Notes under the pieces: model-generated
What the model was told of the DNA's origin: nothing
Seen by the model: the letters and a program-made list of their open reading frames with translations, nothing else
Databases searched by the model: none
Part shown: positions 9,925-59,536 of the stretch, one piece after another
How positions within the stretch are numbered: position 1 is the stretch's first letter
Layout: each line of letters starts with the position of its first letter
From: Glomus cerebriforme
Lineage: Eukaryota > Glomeromycota > Glomeromycetes > Glomerales > Glomeraceae
Reading direction: 5' to 3'
DNA length: 64,000 nucleotides
NCBI GenBank assembly: GCA_003550305.1
Contig: QKYT01000069.1
Coordinates: 1 to 64,000 of the forward strand
Translations under genes and position numbers: made by a program

Positions 9925-12900
9925 ATGAATGGACATCAGTTTGCTTACTCGTCAGCGCCTTTAAAGCGAGTTAAATATGTACAATTTGGAATTTTATCAC
10001 CAGAAGAAATTGTATGTTTGTGTTTTCTTATACGAGAACGCAAGGTTTTTTTGCTGCTTTTATTTAATATTAAAAATATTTTTTTGATACTATTTTCTCG
10101 TTTCCTATAGAAACAAATGTCGGTTGCCTTAATTGAACATCCTGAGACAATGGATGAAACTGGGCAACGACCAAAACAAGGCGGTTTATTGGATCCTCGT
10201 ATGGGTACTATAGACAGGAACTTTAAATGCCAGACATGTGGTGAAGGCATGTCCGAATGTCCAGGCCACTTTGGACACATAGAACTAGCAAAACCAGTAT
10301 TTCATATAGGTAAAGTATTTTACATTTATAATATTTATAATTTNTTTTTTTTTTTTTTTTGTTCTTCACATTCATAAAAAACAAAAGAATCTATATATTA
10401 TAATTTTATCTATAAAAATGATCTTTATTCTCGCCTAAAAATTCAAAAATTTTGGGAATTTTGAATTTTTTTCATTCAATTAATTTTTTTTTAATTCCTC
10501 TGTTATGTGTATCGTTACATTGTTACACAAAATTCATTTTTATCACATTCAATATACTGACGATATTAATTAAAATAGGATTTCTGCCTAAAGTTAAAAA
10601 GGTCTTGGAGTGTATCTGCATACATTGCTCAAAGTTGAAGACAGACGACGTGAGTTGTCTTCTTTTGTCTTTGTGAAATATTGATTTAATTTTTTCGAAA
10701 AATCAATTTTCACATTTTTTATTGCAGTTTAATATTATTTTATACTTTCCTTTATTTATCAACTTTTTTCTCTTCTTTTTTTTTCATTTGTACATATTTT
10801 TCCCGCATTTCAATTGTATATATTTAAAATAAAAAAAAAATTTTCGATCTTTTCTTTCAAATGTTGTTTCTTTTGTGTATAAAAAATTTCCCCATCATTT
10901 TCTATATATTTTATCTTATATATTTATGTATAGTCCAATGCAAAATTTTCGGTAGCACGCAAGATTCGTGATCCTAAACGTCGTCTCCGTGCAGTATGGG
11001 ATATCTGTAAGTCAAAGATGATATGTGAAAAAGGAGATGATCCGGAAAATGACCCAGATAAAACCTCGGAATACGGGGATGATTATGTTCCTAACGGCCA
11101 GAGTGGTAGTAGTAAGCCAATTCCCCAAAGAACCACTACATCTGCAGAAGATTTTGGCTTAAATAAATCTAAAAGACCTCATGGTGGTTGCGGTGCTCGC
11201 CAGCCTACCATTCGCAAAGATGGTTTAAAATTATATATGAATTTTAAAGTTCGAGATTCTGAAGTAAGAATTTACAACCGTTTCTAATTTTCTTTTAAGA
11301 TTCTTTTAAAGATTCTTTTATTGATATTCCCAAATTTTATAGGAACAATCAGGTCAAGATACTAGACAAATACTTACACCAGCACAAGTTTACAGTATAT
11401 TCAAGAAAATATCGTCAGAAGATTTACATGATTTAGGGTTAAATGAAGAGTACGCTCGTCCCGATTGGATGATCATAACAGTTCTTCCTGTACCTCCACC
11501 GCCTGTTCGCCCTAGTATTCAAATGGACGGAACAAGTAGAGGAGAAGATGATTTAACTCATAAATTGTCAGACATTTTGAAGGCTAATCAAAATTTACGA
11601 CGTTATGAGTCCGATGGTTCTCCAGCTCATGTTGTTAGTGAATTCGAAGCTTTACTACAGGTACCAATTTATCTATATAATTAGTTTATATAAGTATCAG
11701 AAAAATAAAATACTTTTTTTTTTTTTTGATTTATAGTTTCATTGTGCAACTTATATGGATAATGAAATGGCTGGTCAGCCACAGGCATTACAAAAATCTG
11801 GTAGACCTTTAAAATCAATTCGAGCACGTCTTAAGGGTAAAGAAGGACGTCTTCGTGGGAATCTTATGGGTAAACGTGTAGACTTTTCTGCTCGTACAGT
11901 AATTACAGGAGATCCGAATATATCAGTAGATGAAGTTGGAGTTCCGAAAAGTATAGCCTCAAATTTGACTTTCCCTGAAATAGTAACTCCGTTTAATGTT
12001 GATCTATTGCAAGAACTTGTAAAAAATGGTCCTTCAATACATCCTGGAGCTAAATATGTTATTAGAGATACTGGAGAACGTATAGATCTGAAACATACTT
12101 CAGGGACACATGTTGTACGATTACAAAATGGTTGGAAAGTAGAACGACATATTAATAATGGTGACATTATTATATTTAATCGTCAACCGTCTTTGCATAA
12201 AATGTCAATGATGGGTCACAGGGTTCGCGTGATGCCATTTTCAACTTTCCGTCTTAACCTTTCCGTAACATCACCATATAATGCCGATTTTGATGGAGAT
12301 GAAATGAATATGCACATACCACAATCAGTCGAAACTAAAGCTGAGATTAGAGAAATATGTATGGTACCAAAACAAATCGTATCACCTCAATCAAATAAGC
12401 CAGTAATGGGAATTGTCCAGGACACTTTATGTGCTATTCGTAAATTTACCAAAAGAGATACCTTTTTATCTAAAGATTTGGTAATGAACATTTTAATGTG
12501 GGTTAAAGATTGGGATGGAAAACTTCCAACTCCGTGTATTTTAAAACCAATACCTTTATGGACAGGAAAACAAATTTTGAGTATGATTATTCCCAGAGGT
12601 ATAAATTCGGACAATTTACGTCATTCTACTCATCCTGATGCTGAAACTACAGATATTTCACCTGGTGATACAAAAGTGTTGATAGAAGATGGAGAATTAT
12701 TGTGTGGTATCGTTTGTAAAAAAACGGTTGGTACTGCACAACAAGGTTTAATTCATGTTATTATGCAAGAATTAGGACCAAATAAAGCAAAAGACTTTTT
12801 GAATGGATGTCAAGCTGTTGTAAATTATTGGCTGTTACAAAATGGATTTAGTATTGGTATTGGTGATACTATCGCCGATAAAGATACTATGAGAACCATT

Positions 12901-15900
12901 ACACAGACTATTAATTCTGCTAAAGAACGTGTAGCTGAAGTCATAATGTCTGCTCAACAAAATACTTTAGAATGTCAACCTGGTATGACAATACGTGAAT
13001 CTTTTGAAAATAAAGTTAATAAAGAACTTAATACTGCTCGTGATTCTGCTGGTCGTAGTGCTGAGAAGAGTTTAAGTGAAGATAATAATGTCAAGCAGAT
13101 GGTAATAGCAGGTTCAAAGGGTTCCTTCATTAATATTTCTCAAATGACTGCTTGTGTTGGACAACAGAACGTTGAGGGTAAACGTATACCTTTTGGTTTC
13201 AAGTTTCGTACATTACCTCACTTCACAAAAGATGATCATAGTCCTGAAAGTCGTGGATTTGTAGAAAATTCTTATTTACGTGGCTTGACACCACAAGAAT
13301 TTTTCTTCCACGCCATGGGTGGTCGTGAAGGTAAAATAATTAAAGTTCTAATATTGATTAGGTAAAATTCAATATTCAAATGATGGAATTAATAATCAAA
13401 TTATATTGTTCAATAGGTTTAATTGACACAGCTGTAAAGACTGCTGAAACAGGATATATTCAGCGCCGGTTGGTAAAAGCTTTAGAGGATGTAATGGTAA
13501 AATATGACGGAACTGTTCGTAACTCTCTTGGAGATATTCTTCAATTTTGCTATGGAGAAGATGGAATGGACGCTTGTTTCGTAGAATCTCAAAACATTGA
13601 TTCTTTACCTATGTCTAACGAAACATTTGATAAAAAGTATTTGGTTGAATTACCAAAACCTGAGGAAAAAGAAAAAGATAAAGAAGAGAAGGAGAAGGAA
13701 AACAGAGAGGAAAAAAAGAAACAAGAACTTGAACAAGAAAAAGTTAAAATTAAATCCCAAGATGAAATAGTTAAAGAGAAAATCAGGGCTGAATATGAAC
13801 AATTAAAGGAAGATCGTCACTCGTTACAAACTTTTATATTTCCTAAAGGTGAAAACCGATGGCCATTACCAGTTAATATCAAGCGTCTTATCAAAAATGC
13901 TCAGCAAAAATTCAAAATCATTCCTTCTCAAAGGACAAAAAGTGATTTACAATTTGTTGATGTTATAGACAATGTCGAAGAACTTTTGTCAAAATTGGAG
14001 GTTGTTAAAGGTAAAGACAGAATCAGTGTAGAAGCACAATCGAATGCTACTTTACTCTTCAAGATCTTGTTAAGATCATGGCTAGCCAGTAAACGTGTAA
14101 TAGACGAATTCCATCTCAATCAACAAGCCTTAAAATGGATATTGGGCGAAATTGAGTTACGTTTCCAAAGATCTCTCGTCTCTCCAGGTGAAATGGTTGG
14201 TACTGTTGCTGCACAATCTATTGGTGAACCAGCTACTCAGATGACTTTAAATACTTTCCATTATGCTGGTGTATCGAGTAAAAACGTCACTCTTGGTGTG
14301 CCTCGTCTTAAGGAAATTATCAACGTTGCCAAAAACATAAAAACTCCTTCAGTTCATATATTTTTAAAGGATCAATATAGAAAAGATATTGATCGTGCTA
14401 AAGAAATACAGGCCGCTATCGAATACACCACTTTAAAGACGGTCACTCAACGTACTGAAATTTGGTATGAGCCAGATATTACAACAACCGAGATTGAATC
14501 AGATAGGGAATTCGTAGAATTATACTATGCAATGGAAGATAAAGATTCTATTTCTGGTTATCAATCTCCTTGGGTCTTACGTTTTGAACTTAACCATGAT
14601 GTAATGCTTGACAAAAAATTACACATGGACATCGTAGGTAATAAGATCCAGGAGAATTTCTCAAAAGATATTCACGCAATATGGAATGATGATAACGCTG
14701 ATTTAAAAGTTATACGTTGTCGTATTATAAGTGAACCCGGCAGCACTAAGGAACATATTGATGAAGAAAATGGTCACAAGATTGAGGAAGATGTATTCTT
14801 GAAACGTGTCGAAAATAATATGTTAACTAACATAGGTCTTCGCGGAATTAAAGGAATTTCTCGTGTTTACTTGATTGATAGTAATAAAACTCATATATAT
14901 CTTGATAGTTCGGGTATAATACAGAAAGAAAGTGAATGGACACTTGAAACTGATGGCACAAACTTACAAGAGGTATTAAATGCAGACAACGTTGATTATA
15001 CACGTACATACTCTAATAATTGTGTTGAGATCATGCAAGTTTTGGGCATTGAAGCGACACGTGCCGCATTATTGAAAGAATTACGAGGTGTTATAGAATT
15101 TGACGGTTCTTATGTTAATTACCGTCACTTAGCTCTTTTGTGTGATGTAATGACCTCAAGAGGTCATTTAATGGCCATTACTAGACATGGTATTAACCGT
15201 GCTGAAACTGGTGCTCTAATGAGATGTTCATTTGAAGAAACAGTGGAAATTTTAATGGAGGCGGCAGCTGTTGGAGAAATAGACGATTGTAGAGGCGTAG
15301 CAGAGAATATAATGTTGGGTCAAGTTGCACCTTTGGGTACAGGTGATTTTGATGTATATCTTGATCCAATATTGTTGAGAACTACAACACCTGCTGGTGA
15401 TAGTTCAATTGTGAAGGCCAAAGAAGGTTATGGTGTTGGTGATTATCGTCGTCCTGGAGGCAACATGACTCCAGCTTTAGGTGCCATGACACCATTTGGA
15501 GCTAGTGCCCGTACACCTTCTCATTTCGCGATGACACCAATGTATAGTGCAAAAACACCTTACGATTCACCTGGACCTAGTTCACCAGCATTTTCACCAG
15601 CATTCTCACCAGCATTTTCGCCTGTTCTTGAAGCAGGTGGAAAATCAGTATCAGTGGGTGGTATTTATAGTTACCAAACAAGTCCATATAACACGGGAAG
15701 TCCAAGTTATGGTCCAACATCACCACAATATTCTCCAAGTTCACCTGCTCCAACGGCATTTGCTCATTCTCCAGGTGGTAGCTCTTTTACACCCCAAAGT
15801 CCTGCTTATAGTCCAACTAGTCCTTCATATTCTCCTTCTAGCCCTACGGGTAATTTTGGCGGTGCATCAATGAATGCTTCAAGTACAATTAATGCACAAT

Positions 15901-16566
15901 CAGCTTATAGACAGCAGCCAACAAGTCCTACCTATTCGCCGACGAGTCCATCATATTCTCCTAGTTCACCAAGTTACTCGCCAACTTCTCCAAGTTATAC
16001 TCCAACGTCACCAAATTATACCCCAACATCACCAAAATATTCCCCTACCTCACCAAATTATTCACCTACTTCACCAAGTTATTCTCCAACATCGCCTAAT
16101 TATACACCGACTTCTCCAAGATATTCCCCAAATCAAGCTCAATCTCAGCATTATTCACCAACGTCGCCGATTTACTCACCGACTTCTCCAAGTTACTCTC
16201 CAACTTCACCTCATTATTCGCCTACTTCTCCATCATATTCGTAAGTGATTTATATTCTTTTGAAATAATTAATACCTTAACTAATTTTTGTTTTTATTAT
16301 AGTCCAACATCACCTGTCTACACACCCTCATCACCAAGTAATTATGCACCATCAGGATATTCACCTTCAGGAATGAATGCACCAACTTATAGTCCGAATT
16401 CTTTGTTAAGTCAATCAACGATGAATAGCAATTCTCCGGCATCACCTCGATATAGGTAAGTTATAGATTATAATTATGAACTTGCTTATGTTATTTAGGA
16501 AAGATAATAATATGTTGTACTTTTTCTCTTTATTTAGTCCGACTTCACCTTCCTATTCTCCATAGG
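9925..16566 (+). CDS. RPB1: RNA polymerase II largest subunit RPB1
   Basis: Nine exons: 9925-10011, 10111-10309, 10579-10649, 10934-11263, 11343-11660, 11737-13330, 13417-16240, 16303-16455, 16539-16566; 1867 aa, all GT-AG and in phase. The N-terminal clamp carries the zinc site CQTCG...[10 protein letters not shown]. The catalytic loop NADFDGDEM (517-525) supplies the three Asp residues that hold Mg2+. A Lys/Glu-rich insert lies at about 948-1000 before the conserved WPLPVNI segment. The trigger-loop region [21 protein letters not shown] is intact. The CTD begins around residue 1565 with non-heptad SPAFSP/TP repeats, then has about 20 YSPTSPS-type heptads, including position-7 variants K, R, N, H, I and V. 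Two introns interrupt the CTD. An N at 10344 lies in a T run of intron 2 and does not touch coding sequence. Confidence 0.97.
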
Positions 16567-18538: not shown

Positions 18539-21500
18539 TCAAGCGATATTGTGCAAAGCAAACCACCCACCCAAGTCGTAACTTGGAATGTCTTGAGATT
18601 TCAATCCGTTAATGCGATCACGTCCAGCTCTTACTGGGGGTTGGAGAACTTGCATTAACTCCCTACCTTTATGTACCAATCGCTGCGCTTGTTTGCGGAC
18701 CCCTTCCATTGAGACACCTTCATCAATATAATTTTTTTGTAGTTCTTCAGATGCATCTTCTTTTGATGGTAATGAGATTGTGTTATTATTTACAATAACC
18801 TCTTGGCTGCTCTTGGCCTGCACGTTTTTTTGTAGTTGCTGTTCTTCAGACTTTACAATATCATCTGAGATGACAATGATAGAATTTCCACTTGATTGTG
18901 CAGGTATAGTAGCATTCGTTTCAGCGGATTTTGTTGGAGGATCAATAATCACCACATCTGGCGATTGCTTGCTTGATGCAACCTTCTTGTTCGGTTGTTC
19001 ATCTGTTGATGATTGCCTACGTTTCTTATTACCTGTTGAACTTCCAGGCGCCGAACTATCACGAGAATGCTGCTTTTGTGTTGGAAGCTTCAAATCAGAT
19101 AGGTTCATGCGAGGTGGAATGATGCTCTCAACTTGAGGTTGTGGGCGTTGTTGTGGTAAAACTGGATTTGCATTACTGAACCCTGCAGGTTCTATGATAC
19201 CTCTTCTTCTGCTCTCCACGAATATGAAATACTTCCGGAATTGCTGTAATAAACTCTCCACAAGATCAAGCCTTAACAAAAATTTATCAGGAAGAGCTTT
19301 TAATTGATCCTCGATCATGTATTTCATTCCCAAAAGACGATAAGTGCCTTGACTTGATTTAGTATAATGCCAAAAGTATGGTAATACATTGTCTACTTCA
19401 TGATACATCGGCTGTAATTCCTTTAATTTGTCCATAATCTTGTTCTTTTCGTCATCAGTCAAGTCATGGATTTCATGATATTGAATCCTTCGATCCTTGG
19501 CACGAGCATCGATAGTTGCAATTTGATTACTTGCTTCCTGAGCTTCTTTCTCATTCAAAACTGCTAAACCCGTTTGCGTTGCAGGTGTAGAGGATGATGA
19601 TTGTCCTATACTAGTATTCGTCTGCGTGTTGGATTGGGGTTGGCTTTGAGAATTAGGACGGAAAGCTGGCATGCTCAAATTAGCAATTCCAATTGATGAT
19701 GCTTGGGTACCTATCGTATTAGGTCTTGCGACAGCAATCATTGGATTATTTTGAACTAACATTGCGTTTGATTGTAATACATTTACACCTGAAGCAAGCA
19801 TTGCATTTGCTGTTGTATTATTATTCTGTGCCATTTTAATAGCCGCAGGGTTAATAGAAGTTGCTGTGCTATTATTAGACATCTTAGCCAACATATTAAA
19901 CATATTAGCATTCAATATTGGATTAGAGTTTGCATTTGTCATCATGTTAGGACGCGCAGCATTTTGAATATTGATCCCAGCGTTAGCTTGTTGTAAAATA
20001 TTAGAATTTGACTGTAACATAAGTCCGGTATTTTGTTGAATTACTGGAGAATTAACAGTATTCGCTGAAACTTGAGAAACTTGTGTTGAAGTTCCTTGAA
20101 CTGGGGAAGCATTTTGACTTTGTTGTATCACTGGGCTTATTGACATCTTGGCTGCAACGGAATTAGCACCTCCTTGAATCTTAACTTGCGCTGCTGCCAT
20201 TTTAGGTGTTTGATTTCTTGAAGGTCCTTTAGGTGGCGGCATGTTCGTTTTTGTTACAGGAACCGTATTCACCGCTGAAGCATTGTTCGCAGCACTAATC
20301 AGATTTTGATTCATAATCATCTTACTGATCATATCATTTGACATATTTTGCGCTGGCACTCTTCTAGTGTTTGGAGGCATTTTTATAGGGATCCCATTAT
20401 TCACAATAGCTGTAGTTTGTTTCAATCTATTATTCATCGTTGACAAATCTTGACTTGTTTGCTGAGGTGTTTTTGGTTGATTCATGATGGGTGTTGACTG
20501 CTGTTGTTGCTGATTAATTTGCGCTTGTGCTTGTGCTGCTTGTGCTGCTTGAGCTGCTTGAACTTGCTGATGTCTTACAATCGTTGCCATTAATTCTTCT
20601 TCATTCATACGTGGCTGTAATTGATTGTTGTGACGAAATTGAACCTGCTGTGGCCTCGGTGATGATGTTACTTGAACAGCCGGACGTGGAAAATTTGCTC
20701 CTAACATTTGAGTCTGTTGCAATGTTTGTTGCCCTGACTGTTGTCGTGCTAATTGGTATTTTCTGATTGTCTCTTGTTGCAAGATCTTCTGCTGATATTG
20801 AGGATTTGCTTGCAGAAATTGATATAAATGCGCATGATTTCGCAATGATGTCTGTGGAGATTGTTGTGATTGTTGTTGTTGTTGTTGTTGTTGTTGAGCA
20901 GCCTGTTGTTGTAATAATTGCAAAATATGTTGATGCACCTGCGGATTCACTTGATTTGCTTGCTGTTGTTGTTGCAGCAAGGCTTGTGCTTGTTGTGCTT
21001 GTTGTACACGTCTTTGTTGCAGAATATGCTGTCGAAGTTGTTCGTGCTGCTGCGGTGAATGAAATGGTTGTTGTTGCTGTTGTTGCTGTTGCTGTTGTTG
21101 CTGTTGTTGTTGCTGCTGTTGCTGCTGCTGCTGTTGTTGTTGTGAGAGTTGAGCGAGCAGCGGCTGTTGTTGTAAAGTTTGCTGCTGTTTAACTACTTGT
21201 TGTTGCTGTTGTTGCTGTTGTTGTTGAGTTACTTGTTGTTGAGCTACTTGCGTAGCCTGTTGTTGAACAGCAGCGGTCTGATTTTGTTGCTGCTGCTGCT
21301 GAGCAGCGCGAAGTTTAAGATGCGCCATTTTTGCTGCTATTTCTTGATTGTATTCGTCTCTTGAATTGGCCTTGTTATACGCATCGTCTTCCCACTTTTT
21401 TGAGGTAATAAATCTTTGATTCGTTGTGAGGTTACGCATTTGCATTTTCAAAAGTTCAAGGAGCTTAAATAACATGCCTACATTAGTTTTACGTTCGTCG

Positions 21501-21586
21501 TCTGACAATGTAAGACGCCAGTCAGTTGAAGAAGAGGCGGCAGCATTCATGTTTATTTGATTAACATTGCCATAGAATCCAGACAT
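18539..21586 (-). CDS. MED15: Mediator complex subunit 15 (Gal11/MED15)
   Basis: Single 1015-aa open frame without introns, unusual among its intron-rich neighbours. Residues ~20-95 form a KIX-like activator-binding domain: DWRLTLSDDERK, then WEDDAYNKANSRDEYNQEIAAKMAHL. A Gln-rich region follows (about 95-320), including one uninterrupted run of roughly 25 Gln encoded by mixed CAA/CAG. A long Asn/Ala/Gln/Met-rich linker follows. The C-terminal part holds the conserved fungal segment with ARAKDRRIQYHEIHDLT, ELQPMYHEVDNVLPYFWHYTK and LPDKFLLRLDLVESLLQQFRKYF, and ends with GGWFALHNIA. MED15 is a Mediator tail subunit that binds activators. A broken copy of its 5' end lies at 23575-23925. Plus-strand frames over the polyQ tract are shadows. 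Confidence 0.93.
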   Translation of the reverse strand: MSGFYGNVNQINMNAAASSSTDWRLTLSDDERKTNVGMLFKLLELLKMQMRNLTTNQRFITSKKWEDDAYNKANSRDEYNQEIAAKMAHLKLRAAQQQQQQNQTAAVQQQATQVAQQQVTQQQQQQQQQQVVKQQQTLQQQPLLAQLSQQQQQQQQQQQQQQQQQQQQQQQQQPFHSPQQHEQLRQHILQQRRVQQAQQAQALLQQQQQANQVNPQVHQHILQLLQQQAAQQQQQQQQQSQQSPQTSLRNHAHLYQFLQANPQYQQKILQQETIRKYQLARQQSGQQTLQQTQMLGANFPRPAVQVTSSPRPQQVQFRHNNQLQPRMNEEELMATIVRHQQVQAAQAAQAAQAQAQINQQQQQSTPIMNQPKTPQQTSQDLSTMNNRLKQTTAIVNNGIPIKMPPNTRRVPAQNMSNDMISKMIMNQNLISAANNASAVNTVPVTKTNMPPPKGPSRNQTPKMAAAQVKIQGGANSVAAKMSISPVIQQSQNASPVQGTSTQVSQVSANTVNSPVIQQNTGLMLQSNSNILQQANAGINIQNAARPNMMTNANSNPILNANMFNMLAKMSNNSTATSINPAAIKMAQNNNTTANAMLASGVNVLQSNAMLVQNNPMIAVARPNTIGTQASSIGIANLSMPAFRPNSQSQPQSNTQTNTSIGQSSSSTPATQTGLAVLNEKEAQEASNQIATIDARAKDRRIQYHEIHDLTDDEKNKIMDKLKELQPMYHEVDNVLPYFWHYTKSSQGTYRLLGMKYMIEDQLKALPDKFLLRLDLVESLLQQFRKYFIFVESRRRGIIEPAGFSNANPVLPQQRPQPQVESIIPPRMNLSDLKLPTQKQHSRDSSAPGSSTGNKKRRQSSTDEQPNKKVASSKQSPDVVIIDPPTKSAETNATIPAQSSGNSIIVISDDIVKSEEQQLQKNVQAKSSQEVIVNNNTISLPSKEDASEELQKNYIDEGVSMEGVRKQAQRLVHKGRELMQVLQPPVRAGRDRINGLKSQDIPSYDLGGWFALHNIA

Positions 21587-23034
21587 AATAAAATTATTTG
21601 TTATATGAGTAGGAATTTGGTTTAAAAATGTAAAAGCTATGAACGTAAAAGGTTTTATTTTATTTAATTTTTTCTTTATATTTATTTATTTGTTTGTATA
21701 AACGTTAAAGGAAGTGATAGAAAATTTTTTAAAAAATATTTTAATAAACACCACAAGAAAAATACTTGGGTAAATAAAAAAAGAGGAAAATTTAGGTTGT
21801 ATAAACAATGAAAAAAAGGTGGGTATAATAAGGAATTTTTTATTTTTATTTTTTTTTTTTTTTTAGTACGTTTAGTGAGGACTAAAAATCTGGTAATATT
21901 ATTTGAGATTTACGTCCTTTTGTTCAAAGTTAGGGAATAAAGAATTTGTCAAACGGAGTAGCAGACAAATAAATTCTTATATATGGAATTTTGCTCCCCC
22001 TTTTTTTGTGGTACATATAAATAATATAAAAAAATTTACACAATTGAATACTTTAAAAAAATATATATAATAATAATATATGTTGGTTTATCATCTCAAA
22101 CGCGTTGTTATTTATATACATCCGCAGTATTACTATATTTTCTTTTTTTTATATTCGAAAAAGGTTTAACTACAAAAAGGATACCCGTCTAATAACTTTT
22201 TTTTTTTTTTAAAAAAAAAAGAATAGCATTTAATGATGATATATCTTTTTAAAATTTCCAGCAAAAGAGAGAAATAACTACGGAAAGATTTTATTTATCT
22301 ATTCCTAATATATTCTTGCACAATATCTGCAAAAGGCTGTTATTTTTGCAGATTTATTTGATGATCACTTGAAACATGGTATCAATTCGGAAATTAACAT
22401 TTATTGTCCCTGAGAAAGTAGGATAAAAAAAACCTTTGAAAATATTTTTGAAAATTCTTTCGTTTAAAAATCAAAAAATTGAGTTTCAACAGTTTTTAAT
22501 TATTTTTTGATAAAAAGTTGTGAACATTTGGTAAATTACTGAATAAATGCATGAAAGTTTCGGACGCCTTTTGCTTAGTTACATTGACAATGGAAATGTT
22601 ACAGTTGCATATTGTCACTTATTTTGGGTTTCTATTTGAGTAATACGTTTTGTTCGTATGCATACTAGTAATGGATAAGTTAATTGCTTATAAAATTTAT
22701 TTCCTTTTTAAGTTGTTTGCCAATGTAAAAATTTCCATTATCAAATAATTTATTATAATTTATTATTAATTATTTTATTTTATTGCGGAAATTAAATACA
22801 CTTTTTTCTAAATTCACGTGATTTTTTTCATAGTTTCTAAATTCGAACGGAAAGACCTTTATACCAAATTTGTTCGGTAAAGAAACAAAGATATAACCAA
22901 ATAGAATTTTTTTAAAAAAAAAATATATTAAATATATTCTACGACGCATTTAACTTTATCTCCCGTTGTCCCGCTGTCGTGTAATTATTTTCCCTGAAAA
23001 TAATATTGCCATCAAATTATAATTTTATGGTTAT
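21587..23034. promoter_or_regulatory. MED15 / pseudo-POP3 divergent intergenic region
   Basis: This spacer lies between the MED15 start and the decayed POP3 copy and should contain the MED15 promoter. Several patches (around 21706, 22120, 22180, 22520 and 22770) recur in the same order and orientation at 23930-24250, showing that the promoter region was duplicated along with the genes. A CACGTG box is at 22815-22820. Confidence 0.6.
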
Positions 23035-27919: not shown

Positions 27920-29251
27920 CTATTTGTGAAAATATCCGATACAACTTGTAGCTTCACATTTACAAATATATTTTTCCTTGATCTTACTTAGACCACCTTC
28001 TATCTCACTATTAAAGTTCCCAAAATAATTAAAAGTTAATTCTTCACCAACTTGAATTTCTCTATTTGTAAAGAAAGCAATATGGTGTAACCTAATGTCG
28101 GCATTATCATTAATAAGAGGGTAGACTACCAAATTAGGATCACAAGAATGATTAAAGAAACGAGAGAAATTTCCATAATATGTGGCATCTACAGTATAGG
28201 CGCATTCATCATGGTCTTCTGCATTATAATCAAGGTCAAATAGGTAAGTTAACCCTTTTGTATCATATTGAGATCCACGCCTATCAGCTTCTGTAGACTT
28301 TATTATTTCTCCATAATAATAGGTTACAAACATACGCTCAGGAATTTTTCTCTTCGTAATTACACCCCAACCTTTTTTAGGGAACCTTTTAATTGCCAAA
28401 CTTAAATCAGACCTTCGTTGAGAAACTCGATTGACGCAATTAGAAAGACAAGTACACTTGTAATTACATTCATAAATCACGTTTCCAGGTTTTAACATTA
28501 CTTGAAATGTTGTTCTGTCATAATTTAATCTTGCCCCAGTGTGTTCAGTGAAACACGAACATACTTTGGCCGTACAATATCCTTCTTTACATTGACATCC
28601 TACCAACCGATCATTAAGATCAGCCTGACACGGAACACCCTCTCCATAAACATAATTTTCAATATATGTAAAATTTGATGGTACTCCAGCATCATCAATA
28701 TCATTTATAACAGAAATTGGTGGTCCATTTTTAATAGCACGACAAAGAAATCTTTCAAATTCCAAAGCTTTTGATGATTGAATTGATGTCATAATTTTAA
28801 GTTTTTTACTAGATGCAAATTTAGCATGTTGTTGGAATTTTTCAACTAATGTCATCGGTCTTTTAACTCCAATGCTATTACTTTTAGTATATTGTTTTAC
28901 CAAAGTATTTTTTTGTATTCGTGTTTCTTTGTGATTTGTATTTCTAACTTCTTTTTTATAAAACTGTACAGAAGTAGATCCATCTTTATTGGCAGTAGAT
29001 GTATTTGAATCACGTTCTTTAAGAAGAAGTTGACGTTTTTTTTCCAGTATTTTTTTATTTCTAATTATTTGCTCACATTGAAAATGGGTTAATAACTCAG
29101 GACAATTAAGATTATGATATGGTTCCCAAGAGTTATATTCACTTCCATAACCTTTCCATTTTATTTGATAGTAAATATTTCCGTTGACAACTTTTTGGTC
29201 AACAATTTTTTCTACTTCATATTCACTTTCTATTTGGTCCAGAGATTCCAT
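27920..29251 (-). CDS. KMT1: Histone H3K9 methyltransferase (chromodomain + SET, SUV39/Clr4 type)
   Basis: Single-exon 443-aa protein. The chromodomain is at residues ~11-62: YEVEKIV, YYQIKWKGY and NSWEP provide the aromatic cage (Y, W, W). The pre-SET region is Cys-rich (VGCQCKEGYCTAKVCSCF and YECNYKCTCLSNCVNRV), a zinc-cluster layout typical of SUV39 proteins. SET motifs: KKGWGVITKRKIP, FVTYYYGEI, YGNFSRFFNHSCDPN and EELTFNYFG. The post-SET CKCEATSC completes the fourth zinc site. The order chromo, pre-SET, SET, post-SET is that of Clr4/SUV39H, which reads and writes H3K9 methylation and builds heterochromatin. That fits a genome with many silenced repeats. Start chosen at the first ATG before the chromodomain. 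Confidence 0.94.
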   Translation of the reverse strand: MESLDQIESEYEVEKIVDQKVVNGNIYYQIKWKGYGSEYNSWEPYHNLNCPELLTHFQCEQIIRNKKILEKKRQLLLKERDSNTSTANKDGSTSVQFYKKEVRNTNHKETRIQKNTLVKQYTKSNSIGVKRPMTLVEKFQQHAKFASSKKLKIMTSIQSSKALEFERFLCRAIKNGPPISVINDIDDAGVPSNFTYIENYVYGEGVPCQADLNDRLVGCQCKEGYCTAKVCSCFTEHTGARLNYDRTTFQVMLKPGNVIYECNYKCTCLSNCVNRVSQRRSDLSLAIKRFPKKGWGVITKRKIPERMFVTYYYGEIIKSTEADRRGSQYDTKGLTYLFDLDYNAEDHDECAYTVDATYYGNFSRFFNHSCDPNLVVYPLINDNADIRLHHIAFFTNREIQVGEELTFNYFGNFNSEIEGGLSKIKEKYICKCEATSCIGYFHK

Positions 29252-30313
29252 GATAACTTTTTTTTTCGTGTTAAGAACGAGAAAGAAATTTAATTTATCA
29301 GTTTAGTAAACAAATCACACCTACTATATTTGGACTGATTCGGATTTGTATCACCTCATTTCCTGATGGATGAGATAAACCCGAAATAAGCAAACTCCCA
29401 CATTCTGCCGTACTCCTCGTACTCCAACTCTCCAAGAGGAGCTTCTTAAAAACTACGTTAGAATAAGGCATACAAACTTAATTTATTGGTTCTCATAACA
29501 TAAAAATTTCGAAAATGACCCGGCAACCCGGCTTTTAATTTTTTTTCAAAAAATTTTATATGTAAAATTTATATGAAATTTTTTTGTAATTTTTTAAAAA
29601 ATTGTACCCGGTATAGTAATAATATATAAAATTTTTTTTTAAAATTTAACACAGATTGACCCGGCCGGTTATGAGAACCAATTTTATTACTTTGTATCGT
29701 CTAATTCATAAAAGCTATTCGTATTTTTCATAACACAAAATTTTGAAATTAAATCAAGTCTATTCAGTGGACACTAATATCCTTAAACAATTATTCATAA
29801 TAACAGGGAGCTAACCTAAAATTCAATTATCATATTTTACATATTTTGCCAGGATCACCTTTTTAATTTATTAACAAGTGATGCTATAAGTTAAAAGGTT
29901 TAATTTATACTAACTTTTTTAGGGTACAATTAACAAAGCCACAGATTAAGATGAGATATTAAATTAATTTCAACGGTTGCTACATTTGATAATATATTGC
30001 ATCGATTTTCAATTCGAAATGCTTGAATTACTACTTTTTGATCAAAAGGGTTATTTTCTGGTTTATTTTTCGGAAAATCATACACACGACAAAGAGCGAA
30101 TGTATCAGTTGATCTTAGACCGTAATTTCGACCAATCACTGAATCAGATTTCTGAATGGCACGCGTTACTGAATACTAATGTTTTTGGACTTCCATTCGT
30201 TACCCATTTACTACATTTAGCGTTATCACGAGTCAGATGCATAGATAAAGATCGATTCTTACAATATTATATATAATACGCTTCACTTTTTTAACTTCCT
30301 TCTCCTATTCAAA
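29252..30313. other. Divergent intergenic region with a MITE
   Basis: Spacer between the divergent SET gene and SVIP-like gene. It carries a 226-bp inverted-repeat element at 29471-29696. Overlapping frames at 29930-30276 on both strands have no recognisable domain and may be chance. Confidence 0.45.
29471..29696. mobile_element. MITE copy 1 (TTGGTTCTCATAAC ends)
   Basis: Perfect inner inverted repeats TTGGTTCTCATAAC / GTTATGAGAACCAA, extending imperfectly outward to TA at both ends. A second copy at 55492-55697 shares the whole body, apart from about 20 bases missing in the middle. Size and TA flanks suggest a Tc1/mariner-type non-autonomous element. Confidence 0.8.
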
Positions 30314-43818: not shown

Positions 43819-44184
43819 ATTTTAGAAACTGAATATGATAGGATGTATAAAGCAAATCAAGTGATTCAGGCAATGTTGAGTTTGAGTTCGGTGGCAAGAT
43901 CTGCAAATTCACAAAGTTGGGATAATAGTCAAGTATTAATAGCAGATTCTGCATGGGAATGAATAAAGGAGAATATTGTTCAAGATGTTAATAGTCAAGA
44001 AGAGGATGAAGAAGGATATTTAAATAGTGTAAATAATCAAGAAGTCGATAATCAAGATATTAGTAGTCAAGAGGAGGATGAAAAAGGATGTTTGAATCAT
44101 ATAAATAATCAAAGTGTTAATAATCAAGAAGTTAATAATGAAATTTTGTTAAAGAATTTTTTTTTTAACTTTTTTTTGTCTTGA
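43819..44184 (+). pseudogene. Degraded repeat-containing ORF
   Basis: One 122-codon frame with a single internal TGA. The first part reads YKANQVIQAMLSLSSVAR...; the second contains two copies of a ~24-residue acidic/Asn-rich unit (SQEEDEEGYLNSVNNQEV and SQEEDEKGCLNHINNQSV). No start codon is convincing. Probably a transposon-associated or tandem-repeat protein remnant. Confidence 0.45.
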
Positions 44185-57917: not shown

Positions 57918-59536
57918 ATGTCGAAGAAAAATAAAACTTATTTGCGAAGGAGAAATGTTAGCTCGAAGAAAGATTTACAAGAAAGAATAAATCTGATCAA
58001 TGAAGCTTATGTGAATAAGAATATTTCTGAACTTCGAAAATTGGCAACTACAGGTCCTGGTTTAGTCAACGATGGATTGCGACGACTATGTTGGTAAGTA
58101 AGTTGATTTTGCAAATATTTTGTCGCGTCGTTAATTTATAAATTTCAATTTAGGCCATTACTCTTACATTGCGAACCCTACGATAAGAAAGACCTTCGAG
58201 GTTGAAATGATCCAAATTAAACTATTTTGCTATTTTGTCTATTATTTTAATTGAAACTCATTAACAAATTTTTCTAGAGGAACATAAAGACGAGCGTCAA
58301 GTTCTGCTTGATATCAATCGATCGTTTGTTCATTATCCTCAAGGTAAACATGTCATTTAAATGCCCGAATTATATCAATTATCGTTCTAATAGCTATTGC
58401 ATGATAAGGGTTAAATCATGTTAAGAGGAAACAGAAACAATCCGAATTGAATGACGTCATCGTGGGAATTTTACGGAGACATCCCAAGCTTGCATATTAT
58501 CAGGTGTGGATTTGGATAGCATACATTACAATTCATTCTAATTCCTATTAACATAATTATATTAGGGATTCCATGATGTATGTTCGATCCTTCTACTTGT
58601 ATTGAGAAATAAAGAAGTTGCTATTAAGGCAGGAGAGAACATTGCAATGTTTTTATTAAGATATCCTTATAATATCGAACATATTAATTTCGTAAAATTT
58701 ATTTGTCATTCCTTAACTTCAATGAACGGATGCGATGCTTGATTCATTAGATCCTATTTTAAGGCAACTTACTCTCCTAAACACTCTAATACGTTTAGAA
58801 GACCCAGAAATTGCAGATTTTCTTGAGAAGTCAAATACTTTACCATATTTTTGTCTTAGTTGGGTTATCACTTGGTGTAGTCATGATGTTCGAGATCTCT
58901 CAAGAGTTGTTCGTTTATTCGATCTATTCATCGCATCAGATCCTTTAATAACAGTATATTTATCTGTTAGAGTAAGTAATATTTATATAAATATTTTTGA
59001 ATTACTTCGAATTGAATATAAAATATTAACTATATATAACAGATTGTCATTAGCCGTCATAAAGAATTATTAGCGCTAGAGTGTGATAGTGCAATAGTCC
59101 ATTCATTCTTATCCAAATTTCCTCAGTATATTGATATAGATGAACTGATTTTAAAAACAATTCAACTATATAATAAGTATAAAAACCGTCCACCCCCTGT
59201 GCTTCAGAAAGCTATCAATGAAGCGTTGGATGAAACGTAATTCTTTTTTTTTTTTATGTTTTTTTTTTTAATTTTCTGATAATTTTATGTTAACTTTCTT
59301 TTTTATATTTAAATAGGTCTTGTGTGAGTTTACACGAACAACATTGGCAGAGCTTGAATGTTGATGAACCCGTCAATTATTTGGATGTAAATGAAATTCT
59401 TTCTTTACCTTCGGTTAAAAAACCTGTGCCAATTAAAAATTCAAAAAAATCAAATAAGTTAAATAAACAAACTACCATATTAGCTGTAGTGTTGGTAATA
59501 GCTGTTGCTTGGATATTTCATAGGAACTCTCCTTAA
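57918..59536 (+). CDS. TBC-domain Rab GTPase-activating protein (TBC1D20/Gyp8-like), membrane-anchored
   Basis: Eight exons: 57918-58093, 58154-58200, 58278-58343, 58409-58503, 58566-58660, 58728-58971, 59043-59236, 59317-59536; 378 aa. The TBC domain has GLRRLCWPLLL, the arginine finger R89 in LLDINRSF, the glutamine finger Q128 in YYQGFHDV, then FLLRDAMLDSLDPILRQL, LPYFCLSWVITWCSHDV and RVVRLFDLFIASDPL. A C-terminal membrane segment (~358-373, ILAVVLVIAVAWIF) anchors it, as in TBC1D20 and Gyp8, which act on Rab1/Ypt1 at the ER. Intron 5 (58661-58727) is a U12-type AT-AC intron. Without removing it the frame hits a stop; with it removed the conserved FLLRDAMLDSLDP block is exact. The exon-4 acceptor at 58408 was chosen because it restores the family's G...E.L segment. 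Confidence 0.92.
58661..58727 (+). other. U12-type AT-AC intron in the TBC gene
   Basis: 67 bases. The 5' splice site ATATCCTT matches the minor-spliceosome consensus. TTCCTTAAC at 58709-58717 matches the U12 branch-site consensus, with the likely branch A about 11 bases before the 3' end. The 3' end is AC. No GT donor or AG acceptor gives an open frame here. Removal joins ...TTATTAAG to GGATGCGATG in phase 2. Confidence 0.9.

What the first reader, a model, noticed from the sequence alone, without database searches (positions are those of the whole stretch)
58661..58727. U12-type (minor spliceosome) AT-AC intron in a fungal TBC1D20-like gene
Seen: the intron starts ATATCCTT, has TTCCTTAAC 11 bases from the end (measured from the branch A), and ends in AC. 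Reading through gives a stop after MNGCDA, and no GT-AG choice restores the frame. Removing exactly these 67 bases rebuilds FLLRDAMLDSLDP, the expected TBC1D20-family block. Known: ATATCCTT and TTCCTTAAC are the two hallmark U12 signals; most Dikarya lack the minor spliceosome, while some early-diverging fungi such as Rhizopus have been reported to keep it. Inferred: this organism has a working minor spliceosome.
Basis: partly seen in the sequence, partly recalled or inferred. Interest (0 to 1): 0.88.

Follow-up and report, generated by a model that had tools for sequence, protein, structure and literature searches.

The report
Minor-spliceosome AT-AC intron in mycorrhizal fungus
A gene resembling Rab regulators, in what is likely an arbuscular mycorrhizal fungus, carries a 67-base intervening stretch with the AT-AC ends and inner signals of the rare minor spliceosome, and the same genome holds genes for all four minor-spliceosome RNAs, which are predicted to remove it.

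Summary
Window 58661-58727 (67 nt) has ATATCCTT at the 5' end, TTCCTTAAC with the branch A 11 nt from the end, and AC at the 3' end. Of 549 candidate introns, removing exactly these bases fits relatives' proteins best (445.9 bits; best GT-AG 413.2; unspliced 186.9). One reader statement is wrong: eight GT-AG choices keep the frame, but fit worse. The same 112.5-Mb genome encodes U11 (two copies), U12, U4atac (narrowly) and U6atac above Rfam cut-offs, plus U11/U12 48K and 25K proteins. The strict AT-AC pattern has 10 matches in the genome against 1 reversed; six lie in recognisable genes. Eight of 13 named gene models from related mycorrhizal fungi break at this joint; three of them read the splice site as protein (R-Y-P). 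The nearest protein is from Rhizophagus clarus (75%). Minor introns are already reported for Rhizophagus irregularis (205), so this is a new member of a known kind. No RNA data were available; splicing itself is inferred. Side finding: the one U12 gene found has the promoter layout of this genome's U6 and U6atac genes, so RNA polymerase III likely makes it.

The parts
57918..58093 (+). exon 1 of the TBC1D20/Gyp8-like gene (start ATG 57918)
   Evidence: gene model; protein match
58154..58200 (+). exon 2
58278..58343 (+). exon 3 (holds the LLDINRSF arginine-finger block; the role of the Arg is recalled)
58409..58503 (+). exon 4 (ends YYQ; glutamine-finger block, role recalled)
58566..58660 (+). 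exon 5, ends ...FLL(AG|), phase 2
58661..58727 (+). AT-AC U12-type intron, 67 nt
58661..58668 (+). U12-type 5' splice site ATATCCTT
   Evidence: can pair with U11 and U6atac
58709..58717 (+). U12-type branch-site motif TTCCTTAAC (branch A 58716)
   Evidence: can pair with U12
58726..58727 (+). 3' splice site AC
58728..58971 (+). exon 6, begins (|G)DAMLDSLDP
59043..59236 (+). exon 7
59317..59536 (+). exon 8, with hydrophobic C-terminal segment and stop
   Evidence: membrane segment judged by eye

Best explanation
Window bases 58661-58727 are predicted to be a U12-type AT-AC intron of a TBC1D20/Gyp8-like Rab-GAP gene that the minor spliceosome of this fungus would remove. Inferred working: U11 pairs with UAUCCUU at the 5' end, U12 pairs around the bulged branch A of UUCCUUAAC, U6atac (delivered with U4atac) replaces U11, and the exons join as AG|G, giving FLLR-DAMLDSLDP. 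If the intron stays in, the protein ends after 186 aa, about halfway through the GAP domain and without its C-terminal hydrophobic segment, so a full-length protein would depend on minor splicing. Shown here: the motifs, the reading frame, matches to the four snRNA genes, to 48K and to 25K, and the complementarities. Inferred: that splicing takes place, and that the position is old and shared by Glomeromycotina and Mucorales.
For: Motifs and coordinates. Rank 1 of 549 candidate introns against a profile of 29 non-Glomeromycotina fungal homologues: 445.9 bits; next 433.6; best GT-AG 413.2; unspliced 186.9. The alignment with human TBC1D20 has no gap at the joint. Pfam RabGAP-TBC 89.1 bits spliced, 42.3 unspliced. 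snRNAs in the own genome, bits/cut-off: U12 70.8/53, U6atac 77.2/33, U4atac 55.9/53, U11 77.0 and 69.2/39; over the cut-off in 0 of 14 prokaryote controls. U4atac and U6atac share a 16-nt perfect duplex; U11 can pair with this 5' site at -9.3 kcal/mol, reached by 4 of 1000 shuffles of the site. 48K and 25K match human U11 snRNP chains of 8r7n (E 3.4e-13 and 4.1e-20). Strict genome pattern: 10 matches, 1 for the reversed control; 9 of 10 join frames open for 30 or more codons on both sides, against 246 of 3000 random deletions; a Pfam domain crosses the joint in 5 of the 9 others. All 7 matches of the protein in the genome lie at this locus. Relatives: 8 of 13 named Glomeromycotina models break at this joint; R-Y-P[F/L] read-through at the joint in P0003, P0006, P0101, P0037, P0045, and T-D-[AE]-M (an AC| codon) in P0002, P0033, P0036, P0037, P0070 (102 rows examined). 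P0007, nearly identical to P0006, has FLLRDAMLDSLEP instead of FLLRYPLRIHSLEP.
Against: No RNA evidence from this organism. U4atac only just passes its cut-off (55.9 against 53). The snRNA controls are prokaryotes, not AT-rich eukaryotes; below the cut-offs, at E up to 10, U4atac rang in 11 and U11 in 3 of 14. Two of the three intron pairings are weakly specific: shuffled sites reach the energy in 47 of 1000 for U6atac and 140 of 1000 for U12. The loose open-joint test (15 codons each side) passes for all 10 genome matches, but also for 1077 of 3000 random deletions. L034, L036, L038 and L041 gave no Pfam match, and L038 looks non-coding to me. RYP also occurs away from the joint in 6 of the 11 rows that hold it. 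Gaps per 10 residues are higher at 281-290 (0.292) than at 141-160 (0.137 and 0.113). P0007 being cDNA is inferred. The intron's ninth base is A, where the other nine genome matches have T.
Confidence: 0.95

Rival explanations
1. The major spliceosome removes a different, GT-AG intron here (for instance 58705-58750) and the protein simply differs from its relatives at this spot.
For: Eight GT-AG choices keep the frame; the models P0003 and P0006 look as if gene finders chose such a solution (my reading).
Against: The best GT-AG is 32.7 bits worse against homologues and loses DAMLDSL, which P0001, P0007 and P0008 have; its 5' site GTCATT is poor (by eye).
Confidence: 0.02
2. The AT-AC intron is removed by the major spliceosome, as some ATAAG-type AT-AC introns are (recalled).
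For: AT-AC ends alone do not prove U12 dependence, and the U12 and U6atac pairings with this intron are only weakly better than shuffled sites.
Against: The interior signals are the full U12 ones; all four minor snRNAs are present; the U11 pairing is specific.
Confidence: 0.02
3. No intron: an insertion, frameshift or assembly error made a pseudogene.
For: The frame is broken as written.
Against: Exact 67-base removal restores the family block; the rest of the gene is intact and no second copy was found; independent assemblies of related species show trouble at the same joint; the signal combination is not expected by chance in the window.
Confidence: 0.01

Closest known systems
Minor introns of Rhizophagus irregularis (Larue and Roy 2023, PMC10639083; abstract and passages seen)
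   Same: Glomeromycotina; U12-type 5' site and branch site; all four minor snRNAs and many minor-spliceosome proteins; 205 minor introns reported there.
   Different: The main text has no hit for TBC1, polymerase or promoter; its supplement could not be read here, so this intron may be on its list for R. irregularis.
Minor introns of Mucorales (about 4 in Rhizopus oryzae, about 20 in Phycomyces, as quoted in PMC10639083)
   Same: Same intron class; gene models of Helicostylum pulchrum, Mucor flavus and Mucor saturninus suggest an AT-AC intron at the same place.
Human TBC1D20 RabGAP (4hl4, 4hlq)
   Same: Same domain, no gap at the joint, E 4.2e-51.
   Different: Whether the human gene has an intron, minor or major, at this position was not tested.

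Membership tests
U12-type (minor) spliceosomal intron, AT-AC subtype | 5' splice site ATATCCTT | tested here: met
   58661-58668
U12-type (minor) spliceosomal intron, AT-AC subtype | branch site TTCCTTAAC a short distance from the 3' end | tested here: met
   58709-58717, branch A 11 nt from the end, (usual range recalled)
U12-type (minor) spliceosomal intron, AT-AC subtype | terminal AT and AC | tested here: met
U12-type (minor) spliceosomal intron, AT-AC subtype | removal restores the frame and the family's conserved block better than other choices | tested here: met
   rank 1 of 549
U12-type (minor) spliceosomal intron, AT-AC subtype | host genome has U11, U12, U4atac and U6atac | tested here: met
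   (U4atac narrowly)
U12-type (minor) spliceosomal intron, AT-AC subtype | host genome has U11/U12-specific proteins | tested here: met
   48K and 25K found; 65K, 59K, 35K, 31K, 20K not tested
U12-type (minor) spliceosomal intron, AT-AC subtype | snRNAs complementary to the splice signals | tested here: met
   shuffled sites reach the energy in 4 (U11), 47 (U6atac) and 140 (U12) of 1000
U12-type (minor) spliceosomal intron, AT-AC subtype | position conserved in orthologues with the same signals | tested here: inconclusive
   inferred from faulty protein models; no relatives' DNA
U12-type (minor) spliceosomal intron, AT-AC subtype | excised in vivo, dependent on U12/U6atac | not testable with these tools
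   no RNA data
TBC1D20/Gyp8 RabGAP | RabGAP-TBC domain closest to TBC1D20 among solved structures | tested here: met
TBC1D20/Gyp8 RabGAP | Arg and Gln finger blocks and C-terminal hydrophobic anchor | tested here: met
   LLDINRSF, YYQGFHD and the C-terminus; catalytic role recalled, anchor judged by eye
RNA polymerase III snRNA gene (side finding: U12 gene L001) | upstream element plus TATA at the position and offset of U6 and U6atac genes | tested here: met
   TCCCATAA -61, TATATAA -27; same 34-nt offset as U6-1, U6-2 and U6atac (U6-3 has the TATA only)
RNA polymerase III snRNA gene (side finding: U12 gene L001) | T-run at the RNA 3' end, no internal T4, no 3' box | tested here: met
   T9 directly after the RNA; no AGCGGGTT within 60 nt
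RNA polymerase III snRNA gene (side finding: U12 gene L001) | transcribed by RNA polymerase III | not testable with these tools
   needs inhibitor, cap or ChIP data

The most novel reading that the evidence does not exclude
The minor spliceosome that serves this intron runs on a U12 snRNA made by RNA polymerase III. The one U12 gene found has the U6/U6atac-type promoter (TCCCATAA at -61, TATATAA at -27), a T9 terminator right at the RNA end, no internal T4 and none of the AGCGGGTT 3' boxes that follow U2, U4, U5 and U11 here. In humans U12 is a polymerase II gene, so this fungus would have moved the branch-site RNA of the minor spliceosome to another polymerase. The AT-AC intron itself would date back to before the split of Glomeromycotina and Mucorales.
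Probability: 0.6. Interest if true: 0.7.

Novelty: new member of a known kind. Interest (0 to 1): 0.45.

Why it matters
It adds a well-supported minor intron, together with minor snRNA genes of all four kinds, to the fungi in which minor splicing can be studied. It also shows that public models of this conserved gene go wrong in many relatives, probably because gene finders do not expect AT-AC introns. The U12 promoter layout, if confirmed, would be a case of a core splicing RNA changing its RNA polymerase, and it can be tested with standard methods in cultured Rhizophagus.

Tried and rejected
Rejected: GT-AG alternatives; a pseudogene reading; a second relaxed AT-AC hit in the window at 43987-44019 (-), 33 nt (relaxed AT-AC pattern expected 0.1 per window); six viral contigs matches to a U12 motif, with no Rfam match over a cut-off; the second U4atac match L004 at 21.9 bits and the fourth U6 match L013 at 30.5 bits, both under their cut-offs. 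The loose open-joint test turned out weak: 1077 of 3000 random deletions pass it, so I rest on the 30-codon version and on the Pfam domains. The U12-branch pairing energy is also weak evidence (140 of 1000 shuffles).

Led nowhere: genome contigs gave no relative of the protein; TBC1D20 with minor introns: 0 papers, and 1 unrelated listing; polymerase III and U12: 0 papers; 6 listed; passages seen of PMC545797, PMC5493778 and PMC4133162; 0; 5 listings, none on the question by title. PMC4133162 says that no polymerase III promoter motif was found in Lichtheimia. My first idea that the broken Sm run of U12 (AATATTTGG) is an adaptation to polymerase III is weakened: U4, which has a 3' box, carries AATATTTGG too.

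Full report
What was checked. The 67 bases at 58661-58727 read ATATCCTT...TTCCTTAAC...AC. The gene around them is on the + strand with eight exons, 57918-59536, coding 378 aa; the seven introns are 60-80 nt, and the other six are GT-AG.

Is this the right intron? I built a profile from 29 of the 100 proteins, chosen by me as non-Glomeromycotina fungi (two of them, P0033 and P0036, are themselves faulty at the joint), and scored 549 candidate introns of five end types plus the unspliced frame. The stated AT-AC choice came first (445.9 bits), the next was an AT-AC choice 6 nt upstream without the U12 5' site (433.6), the best GT-AG scored 413.2 and the unspliced frame 186.9. The alignment with human TBC1D20 has no gap at the joint. 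The strict motif combination was found once in the window and in 0 of 100 Markov simulations of it.

Does the genome have the machine? Own genome G000: 112.5 Mb, 1117 contigs. Rfam matches over the curated cut-offs: U12 70.8 bits (L001), U6atac 77.2 (L002), U4atac 55.9 against a cut-off of 53 (L003), U11 77.0 and 69.2 (L005, L006). None of 14 prokaryote control genomes passed a cut-off; with E up to 10 allowed, U4atac rang in 11 and U11 in 3 of them below it (the G000 loci rescanned). The searches score only the best candidates, so copy numbers are lower bounds. U4atac and U6atac share a 16-nt perfect duplex. The U11 5' end can pair with this 5' splice site, U12 with this branch site around a bulged A, and U6atac with the 5' site (-9.3, -8.0 and -5.4 kcal/mol); shuffled sites do as well in 4, 140 and 47 of 1000, so only the U11 pairing is clearly specific on its own. 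The 48K zinc finger (PF05253, 36.1 bits; the search also passed the cut-off in one control, Sulfolobus) and the 25K ubiquitin-like domain (PF18036, 50.9 and 30.1 bits; 0 of 14 controls) were found. Joined exon pieces match the human 48K (E 3.4e-13) and 25K (E 4.1e-20) chains of the U11 snRNP structure 8r7n. Other U11/U12 proteins were not searched.

Is it alone? The strict pattern ATATCCTT-N25-55-TCCTTAAC-N6-12-AC has 10 matches in G000, and 1 when read backwards. All 10, this one included, pass a loose test in which removal joins frames open for 15 codons on both sides; 9 of 10 pass with 30 codons, the exception being L035. Random deletions pass in 1077 and 246 of 3000. In L035 and L038 the joint used ends at an AC a few bases beyond the matched string. 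L038 looks non-coding to me. Of the nine others given to Pfam, five have a domain that crosses the joint: prefoldin (PFDN5-like, L035), DHHC palmitoyltransferase (L037), ChAPs (L039), MT-A70 (METTL14-like, L040) and WD40 (neurobeachin-like, L043; the neurobeachin model itself is under its cut-off, WD40 is over). Four had none: L034, L036, L038, L041. Four of the five were compared with solved structures: PFDN5, METTL14 and ZDHHC9 came out on top, and the WD40 piece hits many WD40 proteins.

Relatives. Of 13 named Glomeromycotina gene models found (P0001-P0006, P0009, P0010, P0019, P0043, P0061, P0079, P0101), 8 are broken at this joint: P0002, P0003, P0006, P0010 and P0061 have replaced or missing residues, P0019 and P0079 begin at the Met after the intron, and P0101 ends just inside it. 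R. clarus and Gigaspora margarita have two models each, one intact and one broken. Intact are P0001, P0004, P0005, P0009 and P0043. P0003, P0006 and P0101 read FLLR-Y-P-[F/L], which is what AG|ATATCCTT gives in frame; Helicostylum P0037 and Mucor saturninus P0045 read R-Y-P-F there too, and P0037 reads on to S-T-DEM, where T would be the AC| codon. T-D at the 3' side also appears in P0002, P0033, P0036 and Piptocephalis P0070. Over 73 rows, a gap of at least 4 in 8 residues is commoner at this joint (8 of 70 rows; maximum 9 of 70 at residues 156-159) than at the six other introns of the gene (1 to 4 rows of 68-72); by plain gap fraction, residues 281-290 are higher (0.292 against 0.137 and 0.113). 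P0007 (1423-bp JGI contig) is nearly identical to P0006 but reads FLLRDAMLDSLEP; it may come from a spliced transcript, which I infer and cannot prove, since a genomic copy with short introns could also fit in that length.

Known context. PMC10639083 (abstract and passages seen) reports 205 minor introns and all four minor snRNAs in R. irregularis, and quotes about 4 minor introns in Rhizopus oryzae and about 20 in Phycomyces. So the finding is a new member of a known kind. A term search of that text finds no TBC1, polymerase or promoter; its supplement could not be read.

Side finding. Fifteen snRNA genes of G000, all the matches over cut-off in the searches for U2, U4, U5, U6 and the four minor snRNAs (U1 was not searched), were compared. 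TCCCAYA lies upstream of 13 of 15 (not U6-3, nor U4, which has CCCATAA). TATATAA at -27 to -30 is found in U6 (3 of 3), U6atac and U12, and in 0 of 10 others; U4 and one U2 have it at -38 and -40. AGCGGGTT 9-21 nt downstream is found in U2 (3), U11 (2), U5 (3) and U4, 9 of 9, and in 0 of 6 of U6, U6atac, U12 and U4atac. U12 ends in T9 and has no internal T4; U4 also has none, U4atac has a T5 only in its last bases, and U5a has a T-run after its end, so it is the TATA position and the 3' box that separate the classes. In humans U12 is a polymerase II gene and U6 and U6atac are polymerase III genes (PMC5493778, passages). The likely reading is that U12 here is made by polymerase III; U4atac fits neither class. 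Four paper searches listed no earlier report that I could recognise; this is weak, since only open-licence papers are held and I saw passages of three of the papers listed.

Noticed in passing
L001:1501-1663 (+), G000:C233:21832-21994: The one U12 snRNA gene found has the U6/U6atac-type promoter (TCCCATAA -61, TATATAA -27), T9 at its 3' end and no 3' box: likely a polymerase III gene.
   Followed up: partly
L014, L015, L016, L005, L006, L023, L024, L025, L033: U2, U11, U5 and U4 genes all have AGCGGGTT 9-21 nt after the Rfam end of the RNA, a likely 3' box of this fungus (9 of 9).
   Followed up: partly
L003 (U4atac): U4atac has the upstream element but neither the TATATAA at -30 nor the 3' box; class unclear.
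   Followed up: no
L001 and L033: U12 and U4 share an Sm-like site AATATTTGG, where the Rfam U12 consensus has AAUUUUUG.
   Followed up: no
P0002, P0003, P0006, P0010, P0019, P0061, P0079, P0101, P0033, P0036, P0037, P0045: Public gene models of this gene in mycorrhizal fungi and Mucorales look faulty at the AT-AC intron.
   Followed up: partly
L034-L041, L043: Nine more strict AT-AC pattern matches in the genome, including PFDN5-, ZDHHC9-, ChAPs-, METTL14- and neurobeachin-like genes.
   Followed up: partly
window 11737-16241 (+); 18542-21685 (-); 27923-29302 (-): Neighbouring genes: RNA polymerase II largest subunit (Pfam match on 11737-13362; the C-terminal part by eye), Mediator 15, and a chromo/SET methyltransferase.
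   Followed up: no
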